Below, one piece after another: positions 19,367-34,091 of a DNA stretch of 39,350 nucleotides. A model generated the notes under the pieces. It saw only the letters and a program-made list of their open reading frames with translations, ran no database searches and was not told the DNA's origin. The stretch is taken from positions 1 to 39,350 of the forward strand of contig JAGBTM010000024.1 of assembly GCA_017631325.1 (NCBI GenBank), given 5' to 3'. Made by a program: the position numbers and the translations under genes. Within the stretch, counting starts at the first letter, position 1. Every line of letters starts with the position of its first letter. The DNA is from Clostridia bacterium. Lineage in GTDB: Bacteria; Bacillota; Clostridia; Oscillospirales; CAG-272.

Positions 19367-19434
19367 GAAAAAGACAAAAGAGGCGAAATTAGTCTTTTTT
19401 GTCATCTTTAATTTACATATTCATGTATTTTATC

Positions 19435-19490
19435 AAAAATACCGACTAACTGTGGCAAAATATTATTGCCGATTTGGTCGGTATTTTTTT
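19435..19490. terminator. Rho-independent terminator after pdp
   Basis: A 12-bp stem pairs aaaaataccgac (19435-19446) with gtcggtattttt (19477-19488) and continues into a T-run. Nested inside is a small ggcaa/ttgcc stem. The A-run on the left makes it usable from both directions. Confidence 0.8.
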
Positions 19491-19536: not shown

Positions 19537-19562
19537 AGGCGCTCAAACGAGCGCCTTTTTTT
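19537..19562 (+). terminator. Second rho-independent terminator
   Basis: A perfect 8-bp stem aggcgctc/gagcgcct with an AAAC loop is followed by seven T residues. It is the cleanest terminator in the window. It works only on the plus strand and shields the phage cassette from deo read-through. Confidence 0.92.
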
Positions 19563-19651
19563 GTGCAGCTTGTACAGTTGACGAGCCGATTTTCAGTGAA
19601 ATCTTGTAGTGGTCCTATACTTACAAAAAAATCGCGAGATGTTACAATATT

Positions 19652-19830: not shown

Positions 19831-20157
19831 ATGAGCAAAAAGCGTGCAAAGTACAAAAAAGAATATCCGCTCTTAATGTACCGCTTCTTTCGTTCTTTTA
19901 GCGACAGCGGTGCGCCGAGCTTTCAGAAATTTGCCGCAAGCATCGGAGTACTTTATGAGGATTTGGAGAGCTTCAGAAGATACTTGGCGTTTGACAGGTC
20001 CTACCGCGAATGCAGCGAAATCCGAAGAGATTATCTAATTGACAACGCGCTGACACGGCGATTTGACCCGTCGTTTGTCAAGTTTCTTCTCGGCTCTGAT
20101 TCCGATGTAAATGAGGAGGAGGGTGAGCTTACTCTTAGGCTCGAGGTTATAGAATGA
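19831..20157 (+). CDS. Putative small terminase subunit
   Basis: This is a 108-residue basic-to-acidic protein. The N-terminal ~70 residues are helical and basic (KKRAKYKKEY, then FQKFAASIGV with a helix-turn-helix-like spacing); the C-terminus is acidic (SDVNEEEGE). Small terminases bind the packaging start site on phage DNA and feed it to the large subunit. Assignment rests on position directly before a clear large terminase, on size and on the general pattern, not on a decisive motif. The ribosome binding site GAAAGGAA is close to the ATG. Confidence 0.6.
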   Translation: MSKKRAKYKKEYPLLMYRFFRSFSDSGAPSFQKFAASIGVLYEDLESFRRYLAFDRSYRECSEIRRDYLIDNALTRRFDPSFVKFLLGSDSDVNEEEGELTLRLEVIE

Positions 20158-20163
20158 CAGAGG

Positions 20164-20196
20164 TCCTCTGCCCAACGGGGCTTTGTGGGCAGAGGA
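20164..20196 (+). promoter_or_regulatory. Strong hairpin between small and large terminase genes
   Basis: tcctctgccc (20164-20173) and gggcagagga (20187-20196) form a perfect 10-bp stem with a 13-nt loop, without a T-run, so it is not a terminator. It ends 34 nt before the large terminase start, which has no Shine-Dalgarno sequence; the AGAGGAG string lies partly in the 3' arm. It could regulate translation, stabilise RNA or be a packaging-site feature in the DNA. Confidence 0.6.
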
Positions 20197-20230
20197 GCAC
20201 TCTCGCATACCGTAGTCTTTACGTCGTAAA

Positions 20231-21595
20231 ATGCAACATATCAATTTGAAAATCACAAAAAAGCAAAAGGAATTTATCGACGCAACCGAGTCAGAGGTCC
20301 TCTTTGGAGGCGCGGCCGGTGGGGGAAAATCGTTTGGGCAAATAGTTGATTCGCTCATTTTTGCCCTCAAATACCCCCACTCGCGCCAGCTTGTACTCAG
20401 AAGAACCTTTCCCGAGCTCGATAAATCCTTAATACGCACCTCCCTCTCACTTTATCCCAAAAAGCTATACAGCTTCAACGCGTCCTCTCACACGGGAAAA
20501 TTTAAAAACGGCTCAACGGTGGATTTCGGCTATTGCGGAAACGAAAACGACGTTTATCAGTATCAAAGCGCCGAGTACGACGTGATACGCTTCGACGAGC
20601 TTACGCATTTTACCGAAAATCAGTATATTTATCTGATTTCAAGAGTAAGAGGCGCAAACGATTTTCCAAAGCAAATTAAATCCTCAACCAACCCCGGCGG
20701 AACGGGACATACCTGGGTGAAAAAGCGCTTCATCGACCCCGCCCCGCCAAAAAAATCCTTCGTCGGCGAGGACGGAATTAAAAGAATTTTTATACCGTCA
20801 ATGCTCGATGACAACAGATTTCTCACCGAGCGCGACCCGAGCTACAAGGACAGGCTTCTTGCTCTGCCCGACAGAGAAAGGCGAGCGCTCTTATACGGCG
20901 AGTGGAACATTTTCGAGGGGCAGTATTTCGACGAGTTCAACGAAAAGGAGCACGTCATACAGCCCTTTGAAATTCCACCTCACTGGCGCAAATACCGAAC
21001 GGTTGATTACGGTCTTGACAGACTTGCGTGCCTTTGGATAGCAATATCGCCCGACGGTGTATGCTACGTATACCGAGAATACTGCGAGTCGTCGCTGCCA
21101 ATAAGCGTAGCGGCGGAGGAAATCACCAAAAGAACGCCAAGGGGCGAGGACATTTACGCAACCCTCGCCCCGCCCGACCTTTTTGGCAGAAGTCAGGAGT
21201 CGGGCAAAAGCAAGGCCGAAATATTTTCCTCTCACGGAGTCAGCTTTACAAAAACCTCAAACGACAGAGAGTGCGGCTGGCTTGCTGTAAAGGAGCTTTT
21301 ACGGCTTGGATGCGGCGGGCCTCGGATAAGAATTTTTTCGTTCTGCCGAGAATTGATAAAGTGCCTGCCCGCCCTTCAGATAGACAAGCTAAGACCGTCG
21401 GACTGCGCGAATGAGCCTCACGAAATTACACACGCCCCCGACGCATTGCGCGGATTTGCTATATATCACACGCGCCCTGCGGAAAGGAAAGTGAAAAGCG
21501 CTCTCAAGTGGAGCGAGGATATGTGGGAGGATTATCTCTCGGCCGACGCGGAGGGCAAAAAATACCTAAAGGAAAAATACGGAGAAATAAATTGA
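20231..21595 (+). CDS. Phage terminase large subunit
   Basis: The 454-residue protein is the DNA-packaging motor. Its ATPase domain has Walker A GGAAGGGKS (26-34), Walker B VIRFDE (D122, E123) and the coupling motif SSTNPGGTGH (151-160). The RNase H-fold nuclease domain has acidic residues in TVDYG (D259), APPDLFG (D316) and HAPDAL (D404). All key residues are present, so it looks functional. An in-frame stop lies 16 nt upstream, which fixes the ATG at 20231; there is no ribosome binding site before it. It overlaps the portal gene by 4 nt. Confidence 0.93.
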   Translation: MQHINLKITKKQKEFIDATESEVLFGGAAGGGKSFGQIVDSLIFALKYPHSRQLVLRRTFPELDKSLIRTSLSLYPKKLYSFNASSHTGKFKNGSTVDFGYCGNENDVYQYQSAEYDVIRFDELTHFTENQYIYLISRVRGANDFPKQIKSSTNPGGTGHTWVKKRFIDPAPPKKSFVGEDGIKRIFIPSMLDDNRFLTERDPSYKDRLLALPDRERRALLYGEWNIFEGQYFDEFNEKEHVIQPFEIPPHWRKYRTVDYGLDRLACLWIAISPDGVCYVYREYCESSLPISVAAEEITKRTPRGEDIYATLAPPDLFGRSQESGKSKAEIFSSHGVSFTKTSNDRECGWLAVKELLRLGCGGPRIRIFSFCRELIKCLPALQIDKLRPSDCANEPHEITHAPDALRGFAIYHTRPAERKVKSALKWSEDMWEDYLSADAEGKKYLKEKYGEIN

Positions 21596-23325
21596 AAAAC
21601 ACGACAGAAAAAACAGCGTGCGCCCGTGACAAAATAATCGAGCTTTACTCAACGGCCGCTCTTGCTCACGAAGCAAGCTGTCAGGCACTTGAGAAAAATA
21701 TGAGCCAATATCTCGGCTCGTATGAAATCGACAACTCTCGCGAGAGCGCCACGACTGTAAGAAACATCACCTACGAGATTATCGAAAGTGAAATTGACCC
21801 CGATATACCCTATCCCAAGGCCACCCCGTCGGTATACAGCGAGAAAAGAGAACAAAACGCGCGTAATATAGAGCTTCTTTGCAGAGCGATTCGCGAGCGA
21901 CTTCCCTTCGAGTCTCTCAACGACATTGACGAAAGATACACCTATATATACGGCGGAAGCGTTTTCTATATGGAATGGGACAGCGAAATATTCGCTGACG
22001 GAATCTCGGGCGGAGTTAGACTCTATTGCATATCGCCTCTTGATTTCATTCCGGAGCCGGGCGTGTGCGACGTAGAGAATATGAAATATTGCTTTATTCG
22101 CTTTACCACAACCCGCTCGGAGCTTATACGCAAATACGGTGTAACCGAAAAGGAGCTGGAGCTTGCCGAATGCGAATACCGATACGGAGAAGAAAGCTAT
22201 GGCGCAAACACAATGCGCGTCATTCACGCATTCTATCGTGACGAGGACGGCGACGTTTGCAAAACGGTCTTCTCAGGAAAGCTCATACTTTCCGATATGC
22301 CGAAATGCTTCTCAAGAAAGGTTGAGGTATGCTCGAGATGTGGAATAGAAGCAGGCGGCTGCACCTGCTCGGGCGCGGGCCGTTCATACTACGACACCCC
22401 TACCGAAATCATTTGTAATGAGAGCGGCGAGAGGGTGCGCGTGCCGTATTATATGATGCACGAGTTCCCCATCGTAATAAGGCAAAACACAAGATGCTCC
22501 GAATCTCTTTTCGGCCTTTCCGACTGCGAGAGAATACGACCTCAGCAGCAGGCGATAAACAAGGTTGAGTCAAGAATTTTAAAGAAGCTTTTAAGAGCAG
22601 GCGTAACACCCGTTATGCCCGAGGACGCGTCCTTTACTCTCGGCAACTCCATATTTGGTGAAATCATACGAACAAGACCGGGCGAAACCCTTGAAAACTA
22701 CGGAAAAATTGACACGACCCCCGACATATCGCAGGATATAGCCGAGGCAGACCGTCTTTACGAGCAAGCCAAAAGAGTAATAGGAATATCCGATGCGTTC
22801 GTTGGAACCGATACGGCAAACGCAGAATCAGGCTATGCAAGAGAGCTTAAAATATCACGTGCGGCAAGCCGCCTCGAAACTAAAAAGCGCATGAAATACC
22901 ACGCTTATTCAAGACTCTACCGACTGATATTCGAGCATTATTTAGCCTTTGCAGACGAGCCTCGCACCCTTTACGGAACAGCGGGATTTTTAAATTCCGA
23001 AATCTCAATATTCAACCGCTCCGACTTTATGGAGAAGGACGCGGACGGTGCGCCCTACTATTCCGACGCGTATCTGTTTTCGGTTGACCTAAACAGCGGA
23101 AGCGAGTACACCAGAGAGGCTCTTTGGGAGAGAAACCTTTCAAATCTCGAGTCCGGCACTCTCGGTGACAAGAGCTCGCCCGAAACGTTGCTTCTTTATT
23201 GGCAGGCGCAGGAGCGAGCACACTATCCCTTTGCAAAGGATAACGCCGAATACTTCAAGGCTCTGATTCGCGCAAGGAGCGTTACAGAAGCCGTCACAGA
23301 AAATCAACAAGAAAGCGAGAAATAA
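21592..23325 (+). CDS. Phage portal protein
   Basis: From a TTG start the protein has 577 residues. TTG at 21592 overlaps the terminase stop (TTGA) and has a GGAG box 7 nt upstream; an ATG at 21508 lies inside the terminase gene and would add 28 residues in a shadow frame. Portal features include ITYEIIESEIDPDIPYPKA, the RPQQQAINKVESRILKKLL helix and a long helical C-terminal part. A four-cysteine, zinc-ribbon-like insert (C247, C250, C257, C259) sits in the middle. Portals form the dodecameric ring through which DNA enters the capsid. Confidence 0.88.
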   Translation: MKNTTEKTACARDKIIELYSTAALAHEASCQALEKNMSQYLGSYEIDNSRESATTVRNITYEIIESEIDPDIPYPKATPSVYSEKREQNARNIELLCRAIRERLPFESLNDIDERYTYIYGGSVFYMEWDSEIFADGISGGVRLYCISPLDFIPEPGVCDVENMKYCFIRFTTTRSELIRKYGVTEKELELAECEYRYGEESYGANTMRVIHAFYRDEDGDVCKTVFSGKLILSDMPKCFSRKVEVCSRCGIEAGGCTCSGAGRSYYDTPTEIICNESGERVRVPYYMMHEFPIVIRQNTRCSESLFGLSDCERIRPQQQAINKVESRILKKLLRAGVTPVMPEDASFTLGNSIFGEIIRTRPGETLENYGKIDTTPDISQDIAEADRLYEQAKRVIGISDAFVGTDTANAESGYARELKISRAASRLETKKRMKYHAYSRLYRLIFEHYLAFADEPRTLYGTAGFLNSEISIFNRSDFMEKDADGAPYYSDAYLFSVDLNSGSEYTREALWERNLSNLESGTLGDKSSPETLLLYWQAQERAHYPFAKDNAEYFKALIRARSVTEAVTENQQESEK

Positions 23326-23326
23326 G

Positions 23327-23434
23327 ATGAAAAATATCAATTTTTACGAATGCGCGCGCAAAAACAACAAGGACGTCAAGTCCGCGCCGTGCGCACAGAC
23401 AAGAGCATCAAAGGAGGATAGAAAAAATGGATAA
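23327..23434 (+). CDS. Small 35-residue ORF between portal and scaffold genes
   Basis: An ATG 1 nt after the portal stop opens MKNINFYECARKNNKDVK and continues to a TAA at 23432-23434 that overlaps the next gene's start by 8 nt. It is very basic and contains two cysteines. The ribosome binding site is weak, but coupling to the portal would allow translation. It may be a real small structural or regulatory protein or a chance frame. Confidence 0.35.
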   Translation: MKNINFYECARKNNKDVKSAPCAQTRASKEDRKNG

Positions 23435-23963
23435 TAAAATCATATCCGACGTCTTGGCAGATGACGAATCGGACGCACTCGATACAACGTCTATGAGCTA
23501 CGGAGTCGAATACGCGGAGGACAGAATTGAAAATCCCAAGGCCAACGGCACGGGCGATGATAATTCGGATAGCGAAAACCAACCGAGCCTTTCGGAGCAG
23601 TCCGTCGGTGATGCCGACGTGGCGGCAAGCGAGGAGAGTGGCACCAGGGCTACCTTTGAGGGCGATTTAGCGGCTCTTGTAAGCGAGTTTCCCGAACTTT
23701 CTGCAAGACTTTCCGACGGCTTTGTCAACACCGAAAGGTACTCGAAGCTTCGCTCCCTCGGATTAACTCCAACCGAAGCCTATCTCGCAACCGCCCGCAC
23801 TCACACAAAAAACAACCGTTCCCATCTCACCTCATCGGTTCCCGCAGGCGCAAAAAGTCCCTCGTGCGGCATGAGTAAAAGAGAAATGGAGACGGCAAAA
23901 TACCTCTTTGGCGACCTTTCCGAAAGAGAAATCGTAGCTCTTTACAACAAGGTAACCAAGTAA
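23427..23963 (+). CDS. Putative capsid scaffolding protein
   Basis: The 178-residue protein has an acidic, disordered N-terminal ~80 residues (many Asp, Glu, Ser), a helical segment ALVSEFPELSARLSDGF (about 88-104) and a C-terminus with KREMETAKYLFGDLSEREI then a basic end. Scaffold proteins are typically acidic, helical and end with a basic capsid-binding helix, and are encoded between portal and coat, as here. A clear AAAGGAGG box precedes the ATG. Assignment is from position and composition. Confidence 0.6.
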   Translation: MDNKIISDVLADDESDALDTTSMSYGVEYAEDRIENPKANGTGDDNSDSENQPSLSEQSVGDADVAASEESGTRATFEGDLAALVSEFPELSARLSDGFVNTERYSKLRSLGLTPTEAYLATARTHTKNNRSHLTSSVPAGAKSPSCGMSKREMETAKYLFGDLSEREIVALYNKVTK

Positions 23964-24075
23964 TACCTCTCCTTTGAGACAATTTCTTTTTATAAAACAC
24001 TTTTGAGAAAATCTCATTTGAGAAAAGACGTCCGAAAGGCGCTACAAACAAAAATTAAATTAACAGGAGAAAATT

Positions 24076-25140
24076 ATGATAATTTACGCAAAAAGCAATT
24101 ACTTAAACCCCTCGGCTATTGAAGCCTACGAAACTCCTATCAAAATGATAATAGAGCACACCTGCAACACTCTTGAAAGGTCAAACTCTATTGCGAAAAC
24201 ACTCTTCAATTTTGAAAAGAGTAACCGCTACGGTGAAACCATCATCACCTCTCTCGGCTTTGACACCTTCAGCGCTGTCTCAGAGGGTGAGGCTCCCGAT
24301 TCTGAAATCGTATGCGAAACCTTCAGCAAGTTCATCGAACACATTCAGTTCATGAAGGAATTCGTTATCAGCGCGGAAATGATGGAGGATGCAACTCTCG
24401 GTCTTGCAGCCAGCGCAAAGCAAAGAGCCGAGTCGTTCGCTCGAGCTTACTACAAAACCATCAACAAAATTTGCGAGCAGGCGCTTATAAATGCCGACCG
24501 CAGCACCATGAAATACAATGATAAAGAGATCGATCTTCGCACTATCGACAACCTTCCCCTTTTCCACTCCGGTCACTACTGGGGCACAAACGAAATTGAG
24601 AACTTATCAACTCAGTCCAACTATTTCTGGGGAGATATTTTCAATCACGGCTCCGCAGACAACAGAACCCCCTCAGTCGAGGTTTTCGAAGAGGCGCTCA
24701 GCAATCTCAGCATCAAGCTCCGCAATATGTATAACGACAGAGGCGAGGCAAGCGGCTATAACGCCGACACCATTATTCTTCCCGGAAACAGACCTATTGC
24801 CGAAATCCTCACCAAGAAGGTTTGCGGCAGCCTAGGCGCAATTCCCCCGGCTTACAGCGGTGTCAGCGCTCACTTCGGCGCATGGAACGTTGTCATTCTT
24901 CCCAACTGGCGCACAAACGACGACAGAGTTATGATTATGTCAAGCGAGGCGAATAAGGAGCTGTGCGGCAACATGCTCTTCAACCGTATTCCTCTCACCG
25001 TCAGCAACTGGGTAGATAAGCACACCGGCAACTACATCTGGAACGGCCGATGCAGATTCGGTGTAGGATTCGGCAATTACAGACACATTGTTCTTGCTAT
25101 CGATTCGACTTCCGCAGTTCAGAACGCTTCCAAAATGTAA
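24076..25140 (+). CDS. Phage major capsid protein (HK97-fold type, inferred)
   Basis: The 354-residue protein sits in the coat position. It has a helical N-terminal arm, a region around residues 45-75 that could form the E-loop, a long helix at about 100-140 (AKQRAESFARAYYKTINKI) and alternating strands with ADTIILPGNRPI and WNVVILPNWR in the second half, ending with WNGRCRFGVGF. This is the general layout of HK97-fold coats of the Mu-like/Clostridial group. There is no signal of a protease domain. An AGGAG box lies before the ATG. It is intact, with no frameshift. Confidence 0.75.
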   Translation: MIIYAKSNYLNPSAIEAYETPIKMIIEHTCNTLERSNSIAKTLFNFEKSNRYGETIITSLGFDTFSAVSEGEAPDSEIVCETFSKFIEHIQFMKEFVISAEMMEDATLGLAASAKQRAESFARAYYKTINKICEQALINADRSTMKYNDKEIDLRTIDNLPLFHSGHYWGTNEIENLSTQSNYFWGDIFNHGSADNRTPSVEVFEEALSNLSIKLRNMYNDRGEASGYNADTIILPGNRPIAEILTKKVCGSLGAIPPAYSGVSAHFGAWNVVILPNWRTNDDRVMIMSSEANKELCGNMLFNRIPLTVSNWVDKHTGNYIWNGRCRFGVGFGNYRHIVLAIDSTSAVQNASKM

Positions 25141-25190
25141 AGATGAGTTGTCAAAACAACCGTTTTTAACAGAAAGGAAGGATAAATCAA

Positions 25191-26030
25191 GTGATACTAA
25201 GAGATCTTATAAGCGAGGTTTCTTCGCTTGGGTTTGACGGGGTGGTTGAGTGCGACACTCTCTTTCTTACCGCCCTCAGACGAAGCCTTTACAAGATTTT
25301 CACCGACAAAAAAATCACCTCGGAAATAGTCCTTCATAAGTCCAAGGAGAGAATTTCGGACTTTCGTCCCATTTTACGCTATAACGGAGAGGACGAAATT
25401 TCTCTCCCCCTTCGGGGGCGAGCCGTCAGCTTTTACACCTCGGGCAAAGGAACATACACGATAATACACGGCTCGCGCTCTGATAGTTACGGATTTTTGG
25501 GAAGCTCCTCGCGTCACGCTCACAGGCTTAACAGCACGGACGGTAAAATCGTCTTTTCGGGAAGCGGAGCATACACGGTAAGCTCCTTCTCGGTTTTTTT
25601 GGACGCGTACTCAAGCGATTGCGATATACCGGACGGAAAAAGACGCCAAAAATACGATATTCGAGCACAGAGAGAGGATTTCTTTTCCTTCGCTTCGTTT
25701 CCAACCGACGATGAGGGCAGGCCTCTTGAGGCTGTCACTCTCGGATCGGGCTGTATCTACGTAGACGCCGAGTACGAGGGAGATATCTACATTCGCTATA
25801 CCAAACTTCCGAGGGTCACTATGGAGGACAGCCTTGATAGTGAGGTGGATATCCCACGCGAGTACGAGCATCTGTTAGCCGTTCTAGTGGCATCGCACGT
25901 ATTTGTCGACTCAAATTCGGCTCTTGCAGAGCATTACGGAGAGCTTTATTCGTCTATGGCAAATGAAATTCTTCCGGAGCCCTCGTACGGCAGGCGCTCG
26001 CCCTACAACGACACGAACGGATGGGCTTAA
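25191..26030 (+). CDS. Phage head completion / head-tail connector-like protein
   Basis: The 279-residue protein starts at a GTG with a strong GAAAGGAAGG box about 9 nt upstream. The N-terminal ~40 residues are helical (ILRDLISEVSSLGF, then DTLFLTALRRSLYKIF), as in gp4/gp6-like connectors. The centre is beta-rich with many Ser and Gly (SFYTSGKGTYTII). The C-terminus has a helical segment EYEHLLAVLVASHVF. It directly follows the coat gene, where connectors are normally found. It is longer than typical connectors, so a fused beta domain is likely. No closer identification is possible by eye. Confidence 0.55.
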   Translation: MILRDLISEVSSLGFDGVVECDTLFLTALRRSLYKIFTDKKITSEIVLHKSKERISDFRPILRYNGEDEISLPLRGRAVSFYTSGKGTYTIIHGSRSDSYGFLGSSSRHAHRLNSTDGKIVFSGSGAYTVSSFSVFLDAYSSDCDIPDGKRRQKYDIRAQREDFFSFASFPTDDEGRPLEAVTLGSGCIYVDAEYEGDIYIRYTKLPRVTMEDSLDSEVDIPREYEHLLAVLVASHVFVDSNSALAEHYGELYSSMANEILPEPSYGRRSPYNDTNGWA

Positions 26031-26033
26031 AGG

Positions 26034-28655
26034 ATGAAGAAAATCACAAACAGCGCGGGCGGTGAATACGTCCGCGTATACGAGAATATGGGGGGTATCG
26101 GCTCGGCTAAAGACTCCCCCGAAAAAAGATACTGCTACACCGAGAATATGTATAGGGACAGATATTCCGACGATGGCGCCATCGAGAGTATTCCGGGCTT
26201 CAGGAGGCTCTACTCCTTTGAGGGCAAAATAAACGCCATACACAAATGGACCCTTGGCGACGGCAAGGAGTTTATTTTCGTTCACGCAGAGGATAAGCTC
26301 TACCGATTTGAAAAGGACGGATACGATAGCCTCTCAGACATCGGGCCGATTACAACGCTAAAGGACACAAAAAGCTCAGCCGTGGCCTTTGAACGCTCGC
26401 TTTATATACTCGACGGCGAAAAAATTACCGTTGTAGACGAGTATGGCAACGTAAAGCAAATAACCCGCGACGGAGGCGAAAATCTCTACACGCCCCTATG
26501 CTATACCGACCGACAGCCACACGAAGACAGAAATATGCTCACGAGCGACTTTACCGAAAGCTACCTCGTTTCCTCTGCGTCAGACATAAGGTACGGTACG
26601 CCAGAAATTATATACTCCGTTACAGACGACGAGAACAAATGCTGCGCAGTAGTAGGTATAAAATCAGGACACGCGCCCGACGTATATATCCCCTCGTTTA
26701 CGAAAATCGGCAAGGAAATTTACAAAGTAAGTACAATTGCTCCAATGTCGTTTTTTTACAATCTAAATATCAAGTCGGTAACGATGAGCGAGGGCTTGGA
26801 GCACGTCGGTTCATTCTGCTTTTGGGGCTGCACGTCACTTGAAAAGGTGGTACTGAGCAACACCGTACGTACCGTCGAGGACTCGGCCTTTTATAAGTGC
26901 TCTGCGCTTCAGGAGCTCTACATCGGCCTTGGACTTCAAAAAATAAGTATATCCGCATTACACAGCTGCTCCTCTCTTGCCGAAATCAACTATGCGGGAA
27001 ACGAGAATATGCTTACTCTTATCAATGGGGCCACTCTTCTCTTAACGTTTCCCGTGAACTACGAGGCAAAGCACGACGAGGTAGTGGTTATGCTTCCCGT
27101 GCTCTCGGAAGCTAAAGAAATAAAATCGGTAACGGTAAACGGTGCCGAGGCGAGCTTTGAGTTCAGGTCAAACGAGGGCGGAGTAATTATAACGCTCGGG
27201 AACAAAAAAGAAATAGAGGGAGCTAAGGTGCTGATAAGCGGCACGCTTAAGGACGGCGCGGACAGTATTGGCTGCATTGGCGGAGAGCGTATTTCATCTC
27301 TTGAGGCCTTAATCGGCTGTACCGTTTGCGAGGTGTTCGACGGACGTCTGTTTCTGTCCGGAAACCCGCAGACACCCGGTATGGTTTTCTACTCTCACGT
27401 TATGGCTGACGGCACCGCTATTCCTCTTTATTTTGCCAAAAGCGCACGCTTCAGTGACGGCTCGGGCGACTTCAACGTCCTCTCACTTGTCAGTAACGGC
27501 GAAAATCTCGTCGTTTTTAAATCGGGTGACGACGGCTCGGGAAGCATATTCTACCACAAGGCCGACGGCCCCCGTGAAAAACGAACCTATCCGCTCACAT
27601 ACGTACACGGAAAGCTCACGGCAAAGGGTGGAGCGTATCTTTTTTTAAACGAGGCTGTGTTTTTAAGCGAGCTTGGTCTGACTAGGCTAAAAAGGTCTGG
27701 GACGGATTACAAAACCCCCATATCAGAGTCCATGCCTATAAACCGACTTTTGCTCAAGGAAAGCACCGAGAATATACGCTTTTGCGAATGGCTCGGGTAT
27801 CTTGTGCTTTCGGTCGGTGACAGAATATATCTCGCTGACGCCTCGGAAAGAATGCATTCCGGCAAGGACACGGAGTACGAATGGTACTATCTTAAAGGTA
27901 TAGGAAGCTACAAAAACGATACACGGGTATACCGTTACGCCGATTTTACGAAAAGAGGCTATCATCTCGCGGAGCATCCCGGCGAGGTTGTACGAGAGGT
28001 GGTGCACAGCACAACCGACGAGGACGGAAGCGTTTATTATTACGTTTCAATAAACAGAAGGATGTCGCTCGTAATCCCGACTGACGAGTATTCGGGTGGT
28101 GATTTTTATCCCGTCTCGGCAATAGCGTCCTCCGGCGAGCTTCTCTTTTTCGGAACCGAATGCGGTGATTTGTGCGTCTTTAACAACGACAAAAGAGGCC
28201 TGTTTCCCGACGGCTCGTACGAGGAAAACGATGCTAAGGGCAGGCTGCACAAAAGCTACTATTCCTTTCTCGGACACGCAGTCAGATACGCCTTGAAAAC
28301 CTATCCCGACGAGCTTGAGGTCGGCTATTTTGAGAAGTCCACCGTCGGCGCCTCATTAATTATAAGGCACAAAAATCTTGACGGAGGCTCATTAAAATGT
28401 GAAATCATAACCGACAAGGGCGCAAAGAGGTTTGAGGCTTGTCCTTTGAGGGCTTTGAGCTTCGACGATACGGATTTTGGAGAGCTTTCCACAGCTGTAT
28501 CCGACAAATCCTACCTGACCGTCAACGACAGAAGCCGTGGCTTTTTTGAAAAGCAAATTGCTCTCTACTCCGACTCCTATGCCTCCCCCTTTGGCGTCTA
28601 CTCTATTTCCTATCGCTACAAAATAGAGGACACAGTAAAGAAAAGCACTATATGA
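26034..28655 (+). CDS. gp10-like neck/tail-hub protein with BspA-type leucine-rich repeat insert
   Basis: This is an 873-residue protein. The N-terminus (VYENMG...ENMYRDRYSDDGAIESIPGFRRL) and later strings such as FDGRLFLSGNPQTPGMVFYS and WLGYLVLSVGDRIYLAD resemble DNA-stabilisation/neck propeller proteins of short-tailed phages. At about 215-322 is a series of LRR_5 (BspA-like) repeats: YIPSFTKIGKEI, IKSVTMSEGLEHVGSFCFWGC, LEKVVLSNTVRTVEDSAFYKC, LQELYIGLGLQKI. BspA repeats are common in bacterial surface adhesins and would be suited to binding. The gene begins 3 nt after the previous stop, with only a short AAAGG close to the ATG. Confidence 0.65.
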   Translation: MKKITNSAGGEYVRVYENMGGIGSAKDSPEKRYCYTENMYRDRYSDDGAIESIPGFRRLYSFEGKINAIHKWTLGDGKEFIFVHAEDKLYRFEKDGYDSLSDIGPITTLKDTKSSAVAFERSLYILDGEKITVVDEYGNVKQITRDGGENLYTPLCYTDRQPHEDRNMLTSDFTESYLVSSASDIRYGTPEIIYSVTDDENKCCAVVGIKSGHAPDVYIPSFTKIGKEIYKVSTIAPMSFFYNLNIKSVTMSEGLEHVGSFCFWGCTSLEKVVLSNTVRTVEDSAFYKCSALQELYIGLGLQKISISALHSCSSLAEINYAGNENMLTLINGATLLLTFPVNYEAKHDEVVVMLPVLSEAKEIKSVTVNGAEASFEFRSNEGGVIITLGNKKEIEGAKVLISGTLKDGADSIGCIGGERISSLEALIGCTVCEVFDGRLFLSGNPQTPGMVFYSHVMADGTAIPLYFAKSARFSDGSGDFNVLSLVSNGENLVVFKSGDDGSGSIFYHKADGPREKRTYPLTYVHGKLTAKGGAYLFLNEAVFLSELGLTRLKRSGTDYKTPISESMPINRLLLKESTENIRFCEWLGYLVLSVGDRIYLADASERMHSGKDTEYEWYYLKGIGSYKNDTRVYRYADFTKRGYHLAEHPGEVVREVVHSTTDEDGSVYYYVSINRRMSLVIPTDEYSGGDFYPVSAIASSGELLFFGTECGDLCVFNNDKRGLFPDGSYEENDAKGRLHKSYYSFLGHAVRYALKTYPDELEVGYFEKSTVGASLIIRHKNLDGGSLKCEIITDKGAKRFEACPLRALSFDDTDFGELSTAVSDKSYLTVNDRSRGFFEKQIALYSDSYASPFGVYSISYRYKIEDTVKKSTI

Positions 28656-28673
28656 AAGGACTTAAAGGATAAA

Positions 28674-29024
28674 ATGAAAGCAACAAAAATACTTACAACC
28701 GAAATTGACGCCTTAAAAATTTCGTCCCTGCCCTCACGCCCCACTGCTCCAAAGGCATTTGGCGGTGGCGGACTTACCTCGGCCGAAATGCGCGCGGCAT
28801 TCGACGCCCTTTCTCTATTTATTATCCAAAGGTACAACGCGCTTTTGTCTGATATAGAGAGCGGAGAGCTTGCCGAAGCTCTTGTCGTAAATGCGGAGGA
28901 CAAAACTACGCTATGGGACGTTTACGACGGTATAAAAGGCGATGCGACAGCATTTAATATGCTCGGAGAGCTTGAAAGCATAAAGGAAAGGCTCAGCGCC
29001 CTGGAGGGAAAATCGAATGAGTAA
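28674..29024 (+). CDS. Small phage structural protein (neck or tail-fibre attachment-like)
   Basis: The 116-residue protein has a low-complexity N-terminal linker (SSLPSRPTAPKAFGGGG), a helix EMRAAFDALSLFIIQRYNALLSDI and a C-terminal coiled-coil segment (ELESIKERLSALEG). The same overall plan occurs in small proteins next to neck genes in Clostridial prophages as I remember them. An AAAGGA box precedes the ATG. It overlaps the next gene by 8 nt. Confidence 0.5.
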   Translation: MKATKILTTEIDALKISSLPSRPTAPKAFGGGGLTSAEMRAAFDALSLFIIQRYNALLSDIESGELAEALVVNAEDKTTLWDVYDGIKGDATAFNMLGELESIKERLSALEGKSNE

Positions 29025-29412
29025 AATCGTTATAGACTTTTTTGATGGCGAGGCCGAGATAGTCGACCTTACCGCCGACGGCAAAAGCACGCTTGAGCTC
29101 GTTTTCCCTCGCGAAATTGACGGGTTCGTCTCGATTAATATGATAGCGGCAAGGATAAAGGATGGCAGATGCTTCATTGACGGCCGTCTTTTCGACAGCG
29201 GAAAATACACCCCCGAGCTTATAAGAGAGGGTGTAAGACGCCCCCTGCCTCCTATCGTCAAAAATTCAGAAGGCTTTTTTGCCGCAGAGTGCACGTCGGA
29301 GTACGTCCGCAAGCTTTCGATAAGAGAAAGAGCTCTCGAAAAAAGAGTTTCAGAGCTTGAAGAAAAAATGGAAAAGATTTATAAAAGCGTCTACGGAGAG
29401 CTGATATTCTGA
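29017..29412 (+). CDS. Small phage-associated protein with C-terminal coiled coil
   Basis: The 131-residue protein has about 85 N-terminal residues that look beta-rich (VIDFFDGEAEIVDLTADGK, LELVFPREIDGFVSI), followed by a coiled coil at about 98-122 (KLSIRERALEKRVSELEEKM). It is probably a trimeric or dimeric adaptor in the neck/tail region. The start lies inside the previous gene with a GGAGGG box upstream. No family is recognised. Confidence 0.5.
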   Translation: MSKIVIDFFDGEAEIVDLTADGKSTLELVFPREIDGFVSINMIAARIKDGRCFIDGRLFDSGKYTPELIREGVRRPLPPIVKNSEGFFAAECTSEYVRKLSIRERALEKRVSELEEKMEKIYKSVYGELIF

Positions 29413-29435
29413 GAGCTTTTATAGGAAAGGGAAAA

Positions 29436-30272
29436 ATGAAAAGGAAAAATAACATATTTAAAATTTTGGCCGTCGCGGCAATTACCGTGATGGCACTCAC
29501 CCACCTCGCGTCTGCAAACGAGCTTGAGCCTTACACCACCGAGGCGAGCGAGGTAGAGGGGCGCCTCGAGGTGTGCGAGAGCGTCCTCGCATTAGCGAGC
29601 GAGCCGTCCGACAGCCTCGGTACAGCATCTATCGAGGTCGAAAACGGGACACTTGACGGGGTTGCGAGCTCCGAGGAGGGAGCCACCGAGCAACCGCCCG
29701 TATACTCTCAAAACGGCAGCTACGCCTCAAAGGAGAACATAGGCGACGCATCTGAGCCGACAGAAGACGCCGACGACGAGGACGGTGTCGAGAAGGCCGA
29801 AGGCGAGAACGTTTTTACCCAGATTTACGAATATCTGTGTGCATACAGTGGTGACATCTTCGGTGCGCTTGCCTTTATCACGAGCCTTATACTCTCGTTT
29901 CTTTACAAAAACAAGCTCGTGCCCACGATTTCAAAGGGTAACGACAGAGTAGAAAAGGAGCTTAAACGTCTTTGCGATGCCAAAAGAGACACTCTTGACG
30001 AGCTTCGTGCCGAAAACGAGACACTTAGTACGGGCATTTGCGAGCTTAAACGAGCGCAGGACGAAAGCGCACTTGAGGTGCGTTCAGCTCTCGAGAAAAT
30101 AAAAAGCACAGGCGAGCTTATAACCCAAAAGGATAACGCCATGCTCGTTATATCCTCTCAGGTAGACCTGCTCTACGACATTTTTATGGCCTCGTCTATG
30201 CCTCAGTACCAGAAAGAAAAAATCGGAATACAAATCGCAAAGATGAAAGAGAAGCTAGCTGAAAATGAATAA
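29436..30272 (+). CDS. Exported, membrane-anchored acidic protein with cytoplasmic coiled coil
   Basis: The 278-residue protein has a Sec signal at 1-28 (KRKNN, hydrophobic core, AxxA ending ASA), a very acidic Ser/Glu/Asp-rich external region (29-125), a membrane helix at about 140-157 (IFGALAFITSLILSFLY), then a basic stretch and a coiled coil at about 168-235. It would thus present ~110 acidic residues outside and a coiled coil inside. In a phage setting it could be a spanin- or holin-partner-like protein, or a receptor-masking protein; none is shown. It overlaps the following gene by 8 nt. Confidence 0.6.
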   Translation: MKRKNNIFKILAVAAITVMALTHLASANELEPYTTEASEVEGRLEVCESVLALASEPSDSLGTASIEVENGTLDGVASSEEGATEQPPVYSQNGSYASKENIGDASEPTEDADDEDGVEKAEGENVFTQIYEYLCAYSGDIFGALAFITSLILSFLYKNKLVPTISKGNDRVEKELKRLCDAKRDTLDELRAENETLSTGICELKRAQDESALEVRSALEKIKSTGELITQKDNAMLVISSQVDLLYDIFMASSMPQYQKEKIGIQIAKMKEKLAENE

Positions 30273-30633
30273 AAAACCAAATTTTGTAAATCTTGCTTTA
30301 CATTTTCTCGGTTTTTCGTTCTGCATTTTCCCACCTATGTTTGCTACGCTGTCTTATTTTCCACTTTGGACGGAGGGCGGCGGCGAATATTCGGTTGCGG
30401 GCGGGTGCGCTCTGCTTTTGGTGCTGTGCGCCATTCCTCTTTTCAAATTTATAAAGCGTGCGCTTTTTTCTTTTGCTTCATATTTTCTGTGGCTCTTTTT
30501 ATTCCTAATTTTTATGGCTCTGTCGAAAATTGCAGACCAGATGACCGTAATTTCCTTTGTAGGATTTATAGGAAATCTGCTTGGAGCCTTGTGCTTTAAG
30601 CTCGCAAAAAGAAAATCTGCCGAAAGAAACTAA
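30265..30633 (+). CDS. Small four-helix membrane protein, holin candidate
   Basis: The 122-residue protein has four hydrophobic segments (about 8-30, 43-60, 65-90 and 93-112) and a basic tail (KLAKRKSAERN), a holin-like plan. Its start overlaps the exported coiled-coil gene by 8 nt, so the two are translationally coupled. No endolysin gene accompanies it, which weakens the holin reading. It could also be an accessory membrane protein carried by the element. Confidence 0.5.
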   Translation: MNKKPNFVNLALHFLGFSFCIFPPMFATLSYFPLWTEGGGEYSVAGGCALLLVLCAIPLFKFIKRALFSFASYFLWLFLFLIFMALSKIADQMTVISFVGFIGNLLGALCFKLAKRKSAERN

Positions 30634-30733
30634 TCGAGCCTGCCCAAACGAAAATAAATGACCAAAAGAGAAAAATACAGCAACCGAAATTAAAAGGAAT
30701 AACGTCGAAAAAGGAATAATACAGGTAACCAAA

Positions 30734-31594
30734 ATGAGAAAAAACAACATAGAGGAAGACATCGCAGAGTACACGTCTATTGCCGAGCGCGGATACGCTA
30801 CGCTAATTGCCAACTCTGGCAAAATAATAGCTGCTATAACGGCGCTTGTGGCAGCGCTCGTCACCTTCACTGATATCAGCTTTCTAGACCTTTCGAGCGC
30901 CGAGTTCACCTCATCCTTGCTCGTGCTTCTGATATCCTCATATCTTATATACTTTTCGCTTGAGGACGCAGGCGAGAGGCTGGGCAGAGAGAGTAAGGAA
31001 TACCTTTCCAGTGCCGAAAAATACAACGCGGCTCGCAAAAAAATTGAGCCTGATGACACCCCGCGCCTCAGAGAATATACGGTACGCTACTCAAAGGACG
31101 AGCTTGAATACAGAATAAAGGCTCACCTATGTCGCCACGGCTATTCCTTTAGCGAATATACGGGATATTTAATACACGGGTGCGCCGATAAGCGCGCTGA
31201 GGCTGTATTCAAGAGGGCGTCAAAAATGAAAATCCACTCACTCACACCAAGGGAGCTTCTGTCCGCGGTGCACACGGTGAGGGCTGAGCTTGTGCGACCC
31301 GATAGAGAAAAGATTTTTTCCGCTGTCACAAAGCTCTTGCCCTCTACCCTGTGTATGATTTTCACAGCGTCACTCATACTTACCACAAAATCCAACCTCA
31401 CTCCCTCTTTGGTCATTGAAAGCCTACTGAAGCTTTCCGCACTGCCCGTAATAGGCTTTCGCGCTTACGTATCGGGCTTTAATTATTCAAGGGAGCACGA
31501 GGCGTCGTGGCTGGAAACGAAGGCTCGCATTCTCGAAGGATTTTTAAAGGAAAGAGATAATCTCATTACCGAAAGCGAGAGAAAAGCCGTGTAA
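30734..31594 (+). CDS. Hypothetical membrane protein with SLATT-like layout
   Basis: The 286-residue protein has two pairs of hydrophobic helices (about 28-46 and 60-78; about 200-220 and 226-246) separated by ~120 charged residues, and a charged C-terminal helix (REHEASWLETKARILEGFL). This recalls effector-type membrane proteins with paired helices (for example SLATT), but the match is only by pattern. It lies 100 nt after the holin candidate and is the last gene before a terminator. It might be a defence or exclusion function carried by the phage cassette. Confidence 0.55.
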   Translation: MRKNNIEEDIAEYTSIAERGYATLIANSGKIIAAITALVAALVTFTDISFLDLSSAEFTSSLLVLLISSYLIYFSLEDAGERLGRESKEYLSSAEKYNAARKKIEPDDTPRLREYTVRYSKDELEYRIKAHLCRHGYSFSEYTGYLIHGCADKRAEAVFKRASKMKIHSLTPRELLSAVHTVRAELVRPDREKIFSAVTKLLPSTLCMIFTASLILTTKSNLTPSLVIESLLKLSALPVIGFRAYVSGFNYSREHEASWLETKARILEGFLKERDNLITESERKAV

Positions 31595-31697: not shown

Positions 31698-34091
31698 ATG
31701 CGCTACGACAGTGACACAGGTAAAATCAAAATAACGCTCAAAGAATTTGTAACCATTGCAAGACGCGCCCTTTCTCCTACCCTGCCCTGTGACGAGAACG
31801 AGCCAACGCTTCTTGACGCTCCTCGCCGCATTTTAAAGGTTGCCTTGGGAGAGATAAATCCCGAAACGCTGACCCTCGGCTTTGATACGGCCGGACACTC
31901 GTTTGAGCTTATCGCACCTGCCGACGATATCAGCGAAAATACCGTCACCGTCGCAAGAGAAATATCCTCATCTCCAAAGAAGCCGCGCCGCGAGGAAGCG
32001 GCCGAAGCAAGAGGAGAGGCCTTCGTTCTGGCCTACGCACTGGCAATTCTCAGAGGATATGAAAAAATCAAAATACGCCTTCTCTACGTTAATTTAGTCA
32101 GCGGTGAGTCCGAGCTTTTGGAAGAGACGGCAGAGCTCAAAAAGCTCTCTTCCTTCTTCTCAAAATGCCTCGCCACCGTCTCAAAATACGCCCACCCCGA
32201 GATAGAGCGAGTTACGAAAAGACTCCCTACTCTCAAAGCAATGAAATTCCCCTACGACAATATTCGCAAGGGACAGTCGGAGCTTGTTCGCGCAGGATAC
32301 AGAACGCTCTCGCGCGGTGGCGTATTATATGCCTCAGCACCCACTGGCACCGGTAAAACGGTCTCGGCTCTCTACCCCGCTCTGCGCACGCTCGGTGACG
32401 GCAGATGCGATAAGGTCTTTTACCTAACCCCTAAATCCACCACGGCGGAAGCACTGTCGGACTGTATAAATCTTATGGTCAGCCGAGGCGCAGTTATTCG
32501 CGCTATAATTCTTACGGCAAAGGACAAGGCCTGTCTCAACAGAAGAGCCTGCTCAAAATCAAAGGCCGGCTGTAAATTGGCAAAATGCAACTCCCTCCCC
32601 GACGCAACCTTAGAGCTATACGGTATGCAAAAAGCAGTCGTAACCTTAAATGACGCAAGGGACGTGTCGCAAAAATACGAGGTTTGCCCATACGAGCTTA
32701 TGCTGGCATACGCCGAGCTGTGCGACGTGGTTTGTACAGACTTCAACCATCTTTTCGACCCTCACGCATACATCAGGCGCTTCTTTTCCGAGGGTGGAAA
32801 ATACGCCCTGCTCATCGACGAGGCGCACAATCTGCCCGAGCGCGCAAGAGAAATCTATTCCGACGAGATTAGCGTCGAGTATCTTAACGAGGCTGCAGAA
32901 AATTCGCTCTTCGGCGAGCATTCACCCCTCCCCCTCTCGCTTAAAGAGGCGGCAAGAGTGTTCTATGACGTCATTTTTGAGTACCTGAGAGCAGAGCTTC
33001 GTGAGAACCACGACGGTAAAATGCTCGGCGCTGTGAACCTGTCCACCGTACCCGATAGGCTCTACACCCTCTTTGACGAGCTTTCGCTTATGCTCGAGGG
33101 CGAACTTTTTCGAGCATTCTCGGCCCGTGACGATGAGGCCGAACTTCGCCTTAGCGCCATCAAAGCCGTCTACTATAAAATTAAGCGCTTCTGTGACACC
33201 CTCGCGCGCTTCGACGAATGCTACAAATTGTTTGCATTTTACGAAAACGGGGCTATCCGTGTCAAATTATACTGCCTCGACCCCTCGTCCGAGATACGAC
33301 AGAGAATCAATAAATGCCACGGGGCTATGATGTTTTCGGCAACACTCTCACCCATCGATTATTACCGCTCTGTGCTTGGTGGAGAGCGTAGCGACGATAT
33401 GCTTGAGGTTCCCTCGCCGTTCGACACCTCACAGCTGAGCGTAATTATCGCGGACAAGGTAAGCACTCGCTTCTCAGAGCGCGATGATACGCTCTCGGCC
33501 GTTTGCCGAGTTATTGCCGCTACGGTTTCATCAAAGCGCGGTCACTATATGATTTTCTCGCCCTCTTTCAAGTACTCCGAGGCACTTGCGCGCACCTTCG
33601 CGGCAAAATACCCTAAAATCAAATGCATAAGCCAAACCCCCGACATGTCAAGAGTGGAAAAGGAAGAATTTCTTCAGCATTTCAAAGGTGAGGCGGGCTC
33701 TTATCTGGTTGCATTCTGCGTTATGGGCGGTATTTACTCCGAGGGAATAGACCTCGCAGGCGACAGCCTCATCGGCGCTGTCATTGTCGGTGTCGGAATA
33801 CCCGCGCTCTCTTATGAAAGAGAGGCGCTCGCCGAGTACTACGACGAAAAGTACGAAATGGGCAAGCAGTACTCCTACATCTACCCGGGCATGAACAGAG
33901 TTTTTCAGGCCGCAGGACGAGTTATCAGGCGTGAGGACGACCGAGGAGTAATAGTCCTTATAGACGACCGCTTCGACGACCCAATATATAAAAAATCTCT
34001 ACCTGCCCTCTGGCGTGGCGTTAAATTTGTCGGCGACGCAAAAAGAATACGCGAGCTTCTCGACGAATTCTGGCAGGGCCCAAGGGACTGA
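31698..34091 (+). CDS. Rad3/DinG-type ATP-dependent helicase with degenerate N-terminal nuclease domain
   Basis: The 797-residue superfamily 2 helicase has Walker A SAPTGTGKT (213-221), DEAH box in LLIDEAHN (374-377), and motifs MFSATLSPIDYYRS and AAGRVIRREDD near the C-terminus. A cluster of cysteines between motifs I and II (C279, C285, C292, C297, C330) fits the 4Fe-4S cluster of XPD/DinG. The N-terminal ~190 residues align in layout with the PD-(D/E)xK nuclease domain fused to Rad3 helicases in Clostridia, but the expected ExK catalytic string is not seen. A GGGAG ribosome binding site precedes the ATG. It probably unwinds flaps, R-loops or damaged DNA. Confidence 0.88.
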   Translation: MRYDSDTGKIKITLKEFVTIARRALSPTLPCDENEPTLLDAPRRILKVALGEINPETLTLGFDTAGHSFELIAPADDISENTVTVAREISSSPKKPRREEAAEARGEAFVLAYALAILRGYEKIKIRLLYVNLVSGESELLEETAELKKLSSFFSKCLATVSKYAHPEIERVTKRLPTLKAMKFPYDNIRKGQSELVRAGYRTLSRGGVLYASAPTGTGKTVSALYPALRTLGDGRCDKVFYLTPKSTTAEALSDCINLMVSRGAVIRAIILTAKDKACLNRRACSKSKAGCKLAKCNSLPDATLELYGMQKAVVTLNDARDVSQKYEVCPYELMLAYAELCDVVCTDFNHLFDPHAYIRRFFSEGGKYALLIDEAHNLPERAREIYSDEISVEYLNEAAENSLFGEHSPLPLSLKEAARVFYDVIFEYLRAELRENHDGKMLGAVNLSTVPDRLYTLFDELSLMLEGELFRAFSARDDEAELRLSAIKAVYYKIKRFCDTLARFDECYKLFAFYENGAIRVKLYCLDPSSEIRQRINKCHGAMMFSATLSPIDYYRSVLGGERSDDMLEVPSPFDTSQLSVIIADKVSTRFSERDDTLSAVCRVIAATVSSKRGHYMIFSPSFKYSEALARTFAAKYPKIKCISQTPDMSRVEKEEFLQHFKGEAGSYLVAFCVMGGIYSEGIDLAGDSLIGAVIVGVGIPALSYEREALAEYYDEKYEMGKQYSYIYPGMNRVFQAAGRVIRREDDRGVIVLIDDRFDDPIYKKSLPALWRGVKFVGDAKRIRELLDEFWQGPRD

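What the first reader, a model, noticed from the sequence alone, without database searches (positions are those of the whole stretch)
19831..31594. Compact phage head-and-packaging cassette without integration, replication, tail or lysis genes, lodged between housekeeping genes
Seen: intact large terminase (all ATPase and nuclease residues), portal, scaffold-like, coat, connector-like and gp10-like genes in canonical short-tailed-phage order, tightly packed with 3-8 nt overlaps, then three membrane proteins. Not seen: integrase, repressor, polymerase, tape measure, tail tube, endolysin. The block is bounded by the deo operon terminators and by a terminator fused to the helicase promoter. Known: gene transfer agents and capsid-borrowing satellites keep just this kind of subset. 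Inference: either a reduced prophage, a satellite, or a domesticated capsid/DNA-packaging system kept by selection.
Basis: partly seen in the sequence, partly recalled or inferred. Interest (0 to 1): 0.75.

Follow-up and report, generated by a model that had tools for sequence, protein, structure and literature searches.

The report
Domesticated short-tailed phage particle operon
A gut bacterium of ruminants carries, as an inherited part of its chromosome, genes that look able to build a short-tailed virus-like particle with a DNA-packing motor but no recognised genes to copy or spread a virus, which suggests that the particle carries the bacterium's own DNA between cells.

Summary
The cassette is real and not a stray remnant. 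It is the late (particle-making) operon of a short-tailed phage: TerS, TerL, portal, scaffold, coat, adaptor, probable tail nozzle, fibre module and three membrane proteins, with no integration, replication or lysis gene recognised. TerL or coat of this type is in 59 of 69 genomes of one ruminant-gut Clostridia genus. The cassette tree follows host RpoB (21 of 32 splits; chance maximum 2), dN/dS medians are 0.08-0.43, and TerL motif residues are conserved in 46 of 46. TerL, portal and coat diverge like neighbouring host genes. Phage-like loci in a few of the same genomes carry the same operon plus a giant gene and other phage genes. A promoter, TACTTAC-N18-TATAAT, precedes terS in the major clade (27 of 30; 29 allowing N19), not in the outer clade (0 of 14). 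Best reading: a podovirus-type gene transfer agent. One such system (FpGTA, Faecalibacterium) was published in 2026; this seems a separate domestication, but homology to FpGTA was not tested. DNA packaging and transfer are inferred. 'No tail genes' is probably wrong.

The parts
19537..19556 (+). terminator-like hairpin at the end of the upstream (deo) unit; others at 19373-19403 and 19467-19483
   Evidence: consensus match only; 20 such hairpins in the region against 17.4 in shuffles
19618..19648 (+). promoter TACTTAC-N18-TACAAT with TG before the -10 box
   Evidence: 27 of 30 major-clade congeners have the box with spacer 18 upstream of terS, shuffle maximum 1; only match in the window
19831..20157 (+). 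terS, small terminase, 108 aa
   Evidence: PHROG 3064 5.1e-06
20231..21595 (+). terL, large terminase, 454 aa, ATPase and nuclease motifs intact
   Evidence: PHROG 979 4.6e-50; motif residues in 46 of 46 congeners (motif assignment recalled)
21508..23325 (+). portal, 605 aa as listed; true start may be downstream
   Evidence: PHROG 156 3.4e-26; SU10 and P22 portal models below Pfam cut-off
23427..23963 (+). scaffold-like protein, 178 aa
   Evidence: position and conservation in congeners and phage loci; no library match
24076..25140 (+). major coat protein, 354 aa
   Evidence: PHROG 371 weak here, 6.2e-07 in a homologue; median dN/dS 0.083
25191..26030 (+). head-to-tail adaptor, 279 aa
   Evidence: SU10_adaptor 0.0081, PHROG 2125 virion structural protein 5.1e-04
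26034..28655 (+). probable tail nozzle, 873 aa, with BspA-type LRR insert at residues 238-322
   Evidence: matches the gene at the same place in a sister phage locus, 25% over 580 columns, 9e-49; LRR_5 4.7e-17; nozzle is inferred from position
28674..29024 (+). tail-fibre N-terminal module, 116 aa here, up to 1,119 aa in congeners
   Evidence: 36% over 47 residues, 2.9e-08, with the start of a phage fibre that carries Phage_fiber_rpt; variable length; weak PHROG tail-fibre matches in homologues (0.0053, 0.14, 0.26)
29017..29412 (+). conserved small protein, 131 aa, unknown
29436..30272 (+). membrane protein with signal-like start, membrane span and coiled coil (by eye), 278 aa
   Evidence: sequence; same place in phage loci
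30265..30633 (+). small multi-span membrane protein, 122 aa, holin-like by size only
30734..31594 (+). membrane protein, 286 aa, last gene of the operon here and in phage loci
31612..31638 (.). terminator-like hairpin between the cassette and the helicase
   Evidence: scored on the - strand; the same inverted repeat could work on +
31698..34091 (+). DinG-type helicase, host neighbour downstream of the cassette in 18 of 44 tabled congeners

Best explanation
A podovirus-type gene transfer agent of the host. Shown: a late operon like that of short-tailed phages in the same genus, without their giant gene (over 2,000 residues) and without recognised replication genes, has been inherited mainly with the chromosome under purifying selection, in the major clade behind a conserved promoter. 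Inferred: when the promoter fires the cell assembles small short-tailed capsids; TerS and TerL pack pieces of host DNA; the membrane trio or host enzymes release the particles; the fibre and nozzle bind related cells and pass the DNA in.
For: 59 of 69 congeners by TerL or coat; cassette versus RpoB tree: 21 of 32 splits shared, chance maximum 2, 20 of 25 strongly supported cassette splits found in RpoB, n=35; absence in G024, G043, G061, one RpoB clade; dN/dS medians 0.083-0.427 over 17 pairs I chose, only values with dS under 1.5 counted, 3-16 per gene; TerL motifs 46 of 46; identity of TerL, portal and coat to kin 57-75%, flanking deoB, pynP, cdd, dinG 49-69%; dinG downstream in 18 of 44 tabled loci and an ATP-binding-cassette gene upstream in 16 of 44; no integrase or replication gene recognised among the 12 cassette ORFs and eight flanking ORFs scanned in the window; sister phage loci with the same operon plus extra genes; promoter. 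Experimental precedent of the same kind: FpGTA (PMC12946183).
Against: No particle, packaged DNA or transfer has been seen. No holin of family PF05105 in 69 genomes and no endolysin located. The window's own coat is an outlier: mean identity 57% against a median of 73%, departing at 7 of 85 positions invariant in all others; G040 and G027 are alike, so constraint may be relaxed in this very species. Adaptor, nozzle, fibre module, the 131-aa gene and the first membrane gene diverge faster than the flanking genes (28-44% to three of the nearest kin). The coat tree alone has a Mantel r of -0.05 with RpoB although 13 of 32 splits agree. Three phage TerLs nest inside the cassette clade, so exchange with phages, or a less simple history, is likely. 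The giant gene that is absent might be needed for DNA ejection. The promoter is missing in the outer clade (0 of 14).
Confidence: 0.66

Rival explanations
1. Killer particle, PBSX-like: the particle is kept because it kills or inhibits relatives, either by its tail parts or by a toxin carried in the head, and DNA in it is incidental.
For: The same promoter class stands before MuF-RNase toxin plus barstar pairs in some congeners; fibre genes are the most variable part of the operon in length.
Against: TerL ATPase and nuclease motifs are conserved, which a tail-only killer would not need; the pair was seen behind the promoter in four genomes (a fifth and sixth with barstar alone), and not behind either of the two promoter matches of the window genome (the pair itself was not searched for in that genome).
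Confidence: 0.17
2. Reduced or defective prophage that is decaying.
For: It is like a phage operon whose relatives live in the same genus; the window's coat is divergent.
Against: Genus-wide presence, host-congruent tree, low dN/dS, no in-frame stop flagged in TerL or coat hits.
Confidence: 0.08
3. Capsid-forming satellite that uses a helper phage for the missing steps.
For: Size 9.3-14.9 kb and own capsid genes; related phage loci coexist in a few genomes.
Against: No integrase or regulator recognised in the window cassette (attachment sites were not searched); tree follows the host; only 10 of 69 genomes have a second TerL-like match, some of them fragments or weak.
Confidence: 0.05
4. Phage interference: cassette proteins poison assembly of related phages.
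For: Close relatives of the operon occur as phage loci in the same genus.
Against: One or two genes would suffice; ten core genes are kept together in 38 of 46 loci read, most of the rest cut by contig or stretch ends.
Confidence: 0.04

Closest known systems
FpGTA of Faecalibacterium prausnitzii (PMC12946183; abstract, passages and sections 9, 10, 26 read)
   Same: About 10 kb operon with TerS, TerL, portal, scaffold, coat and short-tail genes; no replication genes; [quoted passage not shown] podovirus-like
   Different: FpGTA has a second operon with tail fibre, receptor-binding protein, holin and endolysin; here a fibre module and three membrane proteins sit in the main operon and no second operon was found. 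Sequence homology to FpGTA was not tested
RcGTA-type agents of Alphaproteobacteria (recalled)
   Same: Vertical inheritance, purifying selection, full structural set, no replication genes
   Different: RcGTA is siphovirus-like and in Alphaproteobacteria; this is podovirus-type in Clostridia
PBSX of Bacillus subtilis
   Same: Phage-like particle in Bacillota that packs host DNA
   Different: PBSX packs 13.4 kb fragments, does not inject them and acts as a killer (PMC12946183); long tail recalled
Phage loci G012b, G033b, G035b in the same genus
   Same: Same late gene order from terS to the last membrane gene
   Different: They add a giant gene after the portal region (about 2,430 residues in G012b and G035b; more than 2,500 and cut by the stretch end in G033b); SbcC-like and methylase genes lie near G012b, a methylase near G035b, a transposase near G033b
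Compact cassettes of other genera of the same family (types A and B here)
   Same: Mostly TerS-TerL-portal-scaffold-coat in a short run
   Different: Their TerLs form one separate clade (support 97) and the type A coat profile matches none of ten listed genomes of the window's genus

Membership tests
Gene transfer agent | Structural and packaging genes of a tailed phage without replication, integration or excision genes | tested here: met
   12 cassette ORFs and eight flanking ORFs of the window scanned; the flanking ORFs of congeners were clustered but not run against libraries
Gene transfer agent | Vertical inheritance and purifying selection in a host lineage | tested here: met
Gene transfer agent | Intact packaging motor | tested here: met
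   motif residues in 46 of 46; activity not tested
Gene transfer agent | Particles with random host DNA and no preference for the element | not testable with these tools
   needs particle DNA
Gene transfer agent | Delivery of DNA to recipients | not testable with these tools
   needs culture
Gene transfer agent | Lysis genes for release | tested here: inconclusive
   PF05105 in 0 of 69; other lysis families not searched; membrane trio of unknown function
FpGTA | Homology to FpGTA operon I proteins | not tested
FpGTA | Second operon with tail fibre, RBP, holin, endolysin | tested here: inconclusive
   looked for only through PF05105 and the shared promoter; whole genome not available as a file
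Capsid-forming satellite (cf-PICI, features recalled) | Own integrase | tested here: not met
   none recognised in the cassette or the flanking ORFs scanned
Capsid-forming satellite (cf-PICI, features recalled) | Attachment sites and excision | not tested
   no search for attachment sites was made
Prophage | Replication, regulation and integration genes | tested here: not met

The most novel reading that the evidence does not exclude
An independently domesticated podovirus-type gene transfer agent, fixed in most of a genus of ruminant-gut Clostridia, run from a promoter class that also drives orphan phage-type DNA-binding proteins and, in some species, head-associated (MuF) RNase toxins with barstar immunity, so that one regulon makes particles that carry host DNA and may carry a toxin to non-kin.
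Probability: 0.2. Interest if true: 0.88.

Novelty: new variant of a known kind. Interest (0 to 1): 0.7.

Why it matters
I found one podovirus-type gene transfer agent in print (2026, Faecalibacterium; that paper calls it the first). A lineage whose sister phage loci carry the same operon shows what differs between phage and agent (the giant gene and early genes) and gives a natural comparison. Presence across most of a genus and a clear promoter make induction and gene transfer in an uncultured gut group directly testable.

Tried and rejected
PDB sequence profiles: coat none, nozzle matched through its LRR part, plus marginal hits elsewhere to designed proteins (1.3e-04 and weaker; best 60 of 106 shown), last membrane protein nothing significant, TerL weakly a large terminase (0.005). 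Rfam at gathering score: none. Holin PF05105: none in 69 genomes. One homologue of a head-region gene gave a PHROG endolysin match at E 0.56, not credible. LexA-like box upstream of terS: 12 of 44 with one mismatch allowed, no shuffle control, not pursued. First RpoB tree was discarded because for some genomes the longest ORF was not RpoB; the corrected one is used; its single-gene trees were those made.

GroEL flank was searched to look for an empty site; not followed, because in the sister species G013 cassette and groEL lie on different contigs. No clean empty site was shown. Satellite and decaying prophage were weighed and put low for the reasons in the rivals. The permuted order in G034 is unexplained.

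Dropped or short rows: of 55 genomes with this TerL type I read stretches of up to 20 kb for 46 (window included); 38 of 46 hold all ten core genes. In G032, G007 and G034 the missing ones were found in the next stretch; G054, G058, G067 and G068 end at contig ends; G016 lacks the last three in 20 kb. The last membrane gene was found in 53 of 69 genomes, and in 17 of 22 over 90% complete; G031 and G068 are such genomes with cassette genes but without it. Trees use 35 of the loci. The 'major clade' list was set by me from the RpoB tree and, for genomes without usable RpoB, from cassette likeness and flanks; 30 of 31 listed had a usable upstream. The label ABC-F for the upstream gene (c10) and the names of several flanking genes were read by eye, not run against a library.
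Full report
What is there. The window holds a + strand run from terS (19831) to a membrane protein (ends 31594) between a deo-type nucleoside operon and a DinG-type helicase. TerL, portal and TerS are recognised by profile; adaptor and coat weakly here and better in homologues. The gene at 26034 sits where short-tailed phages keep their tail nozzle (recalled); outside its LRR block it matches the gene at the same place in a sister phage locus (25% over 580 columns, 9e-49), while the LRR block resembles LRRs in that phage's fibre. No library names it a nozzle. The 116-aa gene at 28674 matches the start of that phage's tail fibre (36% over 47 residues, 2.9e-08), which also carries Phage_fiber_rpt; in congeners the gene grows to 1,119 residues. 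So the operon probably encodes a whole short-tailed particle, not only a head.

How widespread. With TerL, 57 of 69 genus genomes match; two of them (G020, G061) only through a distant, phage-like TerL, leaving 55. With the coat profile 57 of 69 match; four of these have no TerL match (G001, G013, G051, G063), three of which I read and found cut by a contig end or broken up over contigs (G001, G013, G063). Together 59 of 69. The ten without either are G005, G009, G020, G024, G026, G028, G043, G056, G060, G061; G024, G043 and G061 are over 90% complete and form one RpoB clade whose sister G013 has the cassette, so one loss explains them. In 394 genomes drawn from the order, coat hits over 600 bits are in five genomes, all of this genus; one genome of another genus scores 462 and the other genera under 230. 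Named close relatives (at least 67% in TerL) are 'Clostridia bacterium' assemblies with goat, sheep, roe deer, water deer or yak gut in the title, and one 'Oscillospiraceae bacterium'.

Inheritance and selection. Trees of RpoB and of TerL+portal+coat+nozzle share 21 of 32 splits in 35 genomes (at most 2 in 200 label shuffles); 20 of 25 well-supported cassette splits are in the RpoB tree; Mantel r 0.73 against a permutation maximum of 0.28. Nine single genes share 12-23 of 27-32 splits (random maximum 2-3; same call); the coat's distance correlation is nil (-0.05). dN/dS (my own Nei-Gojobori script, 17 pairs chosen as close, values with dS under 1.5 only, 3-16 per gene) has medians of 0.083 coat, 0.12 TerL, 0.17 portal, 0.20-0.36 for ten others and 0.43 for one head-region gene (c12) that the window lacks. 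Against seven kin, TerL, portal and coat are 57-75% identical; the flanking deoB, pynP, cdd and dinG, where present, are 49-69% and RpoB 89-92%. So these three age like ordinary neighbouring host genes. Adaptor, nozzle, fibre module, the 131-aa gene and the first membrane gene diverge faster, 28-44% to near kin. Against the reading, the window's own coat and those of G040 and G027 are outliers.

Place. Of 44 tabled loci, 16 have an ATP-binding-cassette gene (c10, ABC-F-like by eye) among the three genes upstream and 18 have dinG among the two genes downstream; the window and some of its closest kin have dinG downstream and deo or other genes upstream; outer species have other neighbours that agree within clades. 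Where both ends were seen, cassette length is 9.3-14.9 kb. In G034 the order is permuted: scaffold to last membrane gene, then terS-terL-portal; unexplained.

Origin. In a quick TerL tree of 100 rows (LG+G4), the cassettes and three phage loci of this genus or family (G012b, G035b, G256) make one clade (support 98); compact cassettes of other genera of the family (types A and B) make another (support 97); gut phages lie between. This fits a domestication separate from those. Phage loci G012b, G033b and G035b carry terS-terL-portal-(giant gene)-scaffold-c13-coat-adaptor-nozzle-fibre and end with the same three membrane genes. The giant gene of G012b (2,429 residues) has a weak MuF_C match (1.3e-04, below cut-off). 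Near G012b are SbcC-like and methylase genes, near G035b a methylase, near G033b a transposase; near G256 ParB-like and replication-initiation genes. I did not show that any of these loci is a complete prophage. Thus the cassette is like that late operon without the giant gene and without early genes, and the membrane trio belongs to the phage operon.

Promoter. Counting words upstream of terS in 44 congeners gave TACTTAC in 29 (maximum for any word in shuffles 10). It stands 18 bases before a TATAAT-like box. With spacer 16-20 it is found in 29 of 53 upstreams examined, phage and distant rows included. In the major clade 27 of 30 have exactly N18 and two more (G022, G033) N19; in the outer clade 0 of 14. 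The spacer is not conserved; TG before the -10 box is common. A scan of 69 genomes for TACTTAC-N17-19-TANAAT gave 86 matches against 35 for the reversed pattern; about 23 of the 86 are cassettes, so the rest (about 63 against 35) is enriched less than twofold. Of 71 sites in loci that I had (14 cassettes, 57 others), 60 have N18, 9 N19, 2 N17. Of the 57 others, 11 stand before small winged-helix proteins (HTH_36 3.3e-07 in one tested, 0.016 in the other), 8 before a family that looks to me like replisome organisers (two tested, no credible Pfam hit), one before a protein with Phage_rep_org_N (1.6e-11), and 7 before MuF-RNase and/or barstar genes (RNase 1.4e-06, Mu_F 0.0017 below cut-off, barstar 6.1e-18): pairs in G009 (twice), G014, G016 and, cut short, G039; barstar alone in G038 and G049. 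The remaining sites share no gene family that I could name a target. In the window genome the only other match (C38) has no clear gene. The regulon idea is a lead, not a result.

What is known. Searches of the paper library for gene transfer agents with Clostridia, with podovirus and domesticated, for FpGTA, with Firmicutes and terminase, with rumen, and with domestication gave one close paper, PMC12946183 (abstract, passages, sections 9, 10, 26 read; supplements not available), which describes FpGTA: a 10.5 kb operon, 40 nm particles, 8.4-8.9 kb host DNA, a second operon with fibre and lysis genes. The present cassette looks as if it works alike. Whether it is homologous is untested: I had no named Faecalibacterium sequence. 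A 9,588-base 'phage' record from human faeces (MT836592) has TerL, a type A coat and a nozzle gene.

Verdict. Domestication is well supported; DNA packaging is likely; transfer is plausible and untested. MuF toxins as a phage theme: PMC5576092, seen in the search listing and the start of its abstract only.

Noticed in passing
other genera of the same family, e.g. L286-L290, L295, L296, L310-L315: A different compact cassette (TerS-TerL-nozzle/portal-scaffold-278-aa coat): coat profile hits in 84 of 295 family genomes and 26 of 71 genera, some weak, mostly one per genome, none in the ten genomes of the window's genus that the output lists. It could be the wider FpGTA-like group.
   Followed up: partly
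L302, L303, L306, L307, L323, L325: A third compact cassette type with a 298-320-aa coat in four genera; its TerL is one clade, sister to the 278-aa-coat type.
   Followed up: partly
L418, L421, L427, L440: MuF-like RNase toxin and barstar pairs (cut short in L440) directly behind the TACTTAC-N18-TANAAT promoter in congeners.
   Followed up: partly
L411, L414, L433, L436, L445, L446 and others: Orphan phage-type HTH or replisome-organiser-like genes, some beside housekeeping genes, behind the same promoter.
   Followed up: partly
L354 and L226 (G034): Permuted cassette: scaffold to last membrane gene first, then terS-terL-portal.
   Followed up: no
window 26034-28655, residues 238-322: BspA-type leucine-rich repeats inside the probable tail nozzle; G023, G003 and G045 have a shorter protein of 437-606 residues.
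   Followed up: no
L448 (G046): A TACTTAC-N19-TATAAT match about 200 bases before a gene that reads like dprA by eye; one case only.
   Followed up: no
L285 (MT836592): A 9,588-base human-faecal 'phage' record that looks like a compact cassette of this kind rather than a phage genome.
   Followed up: partly
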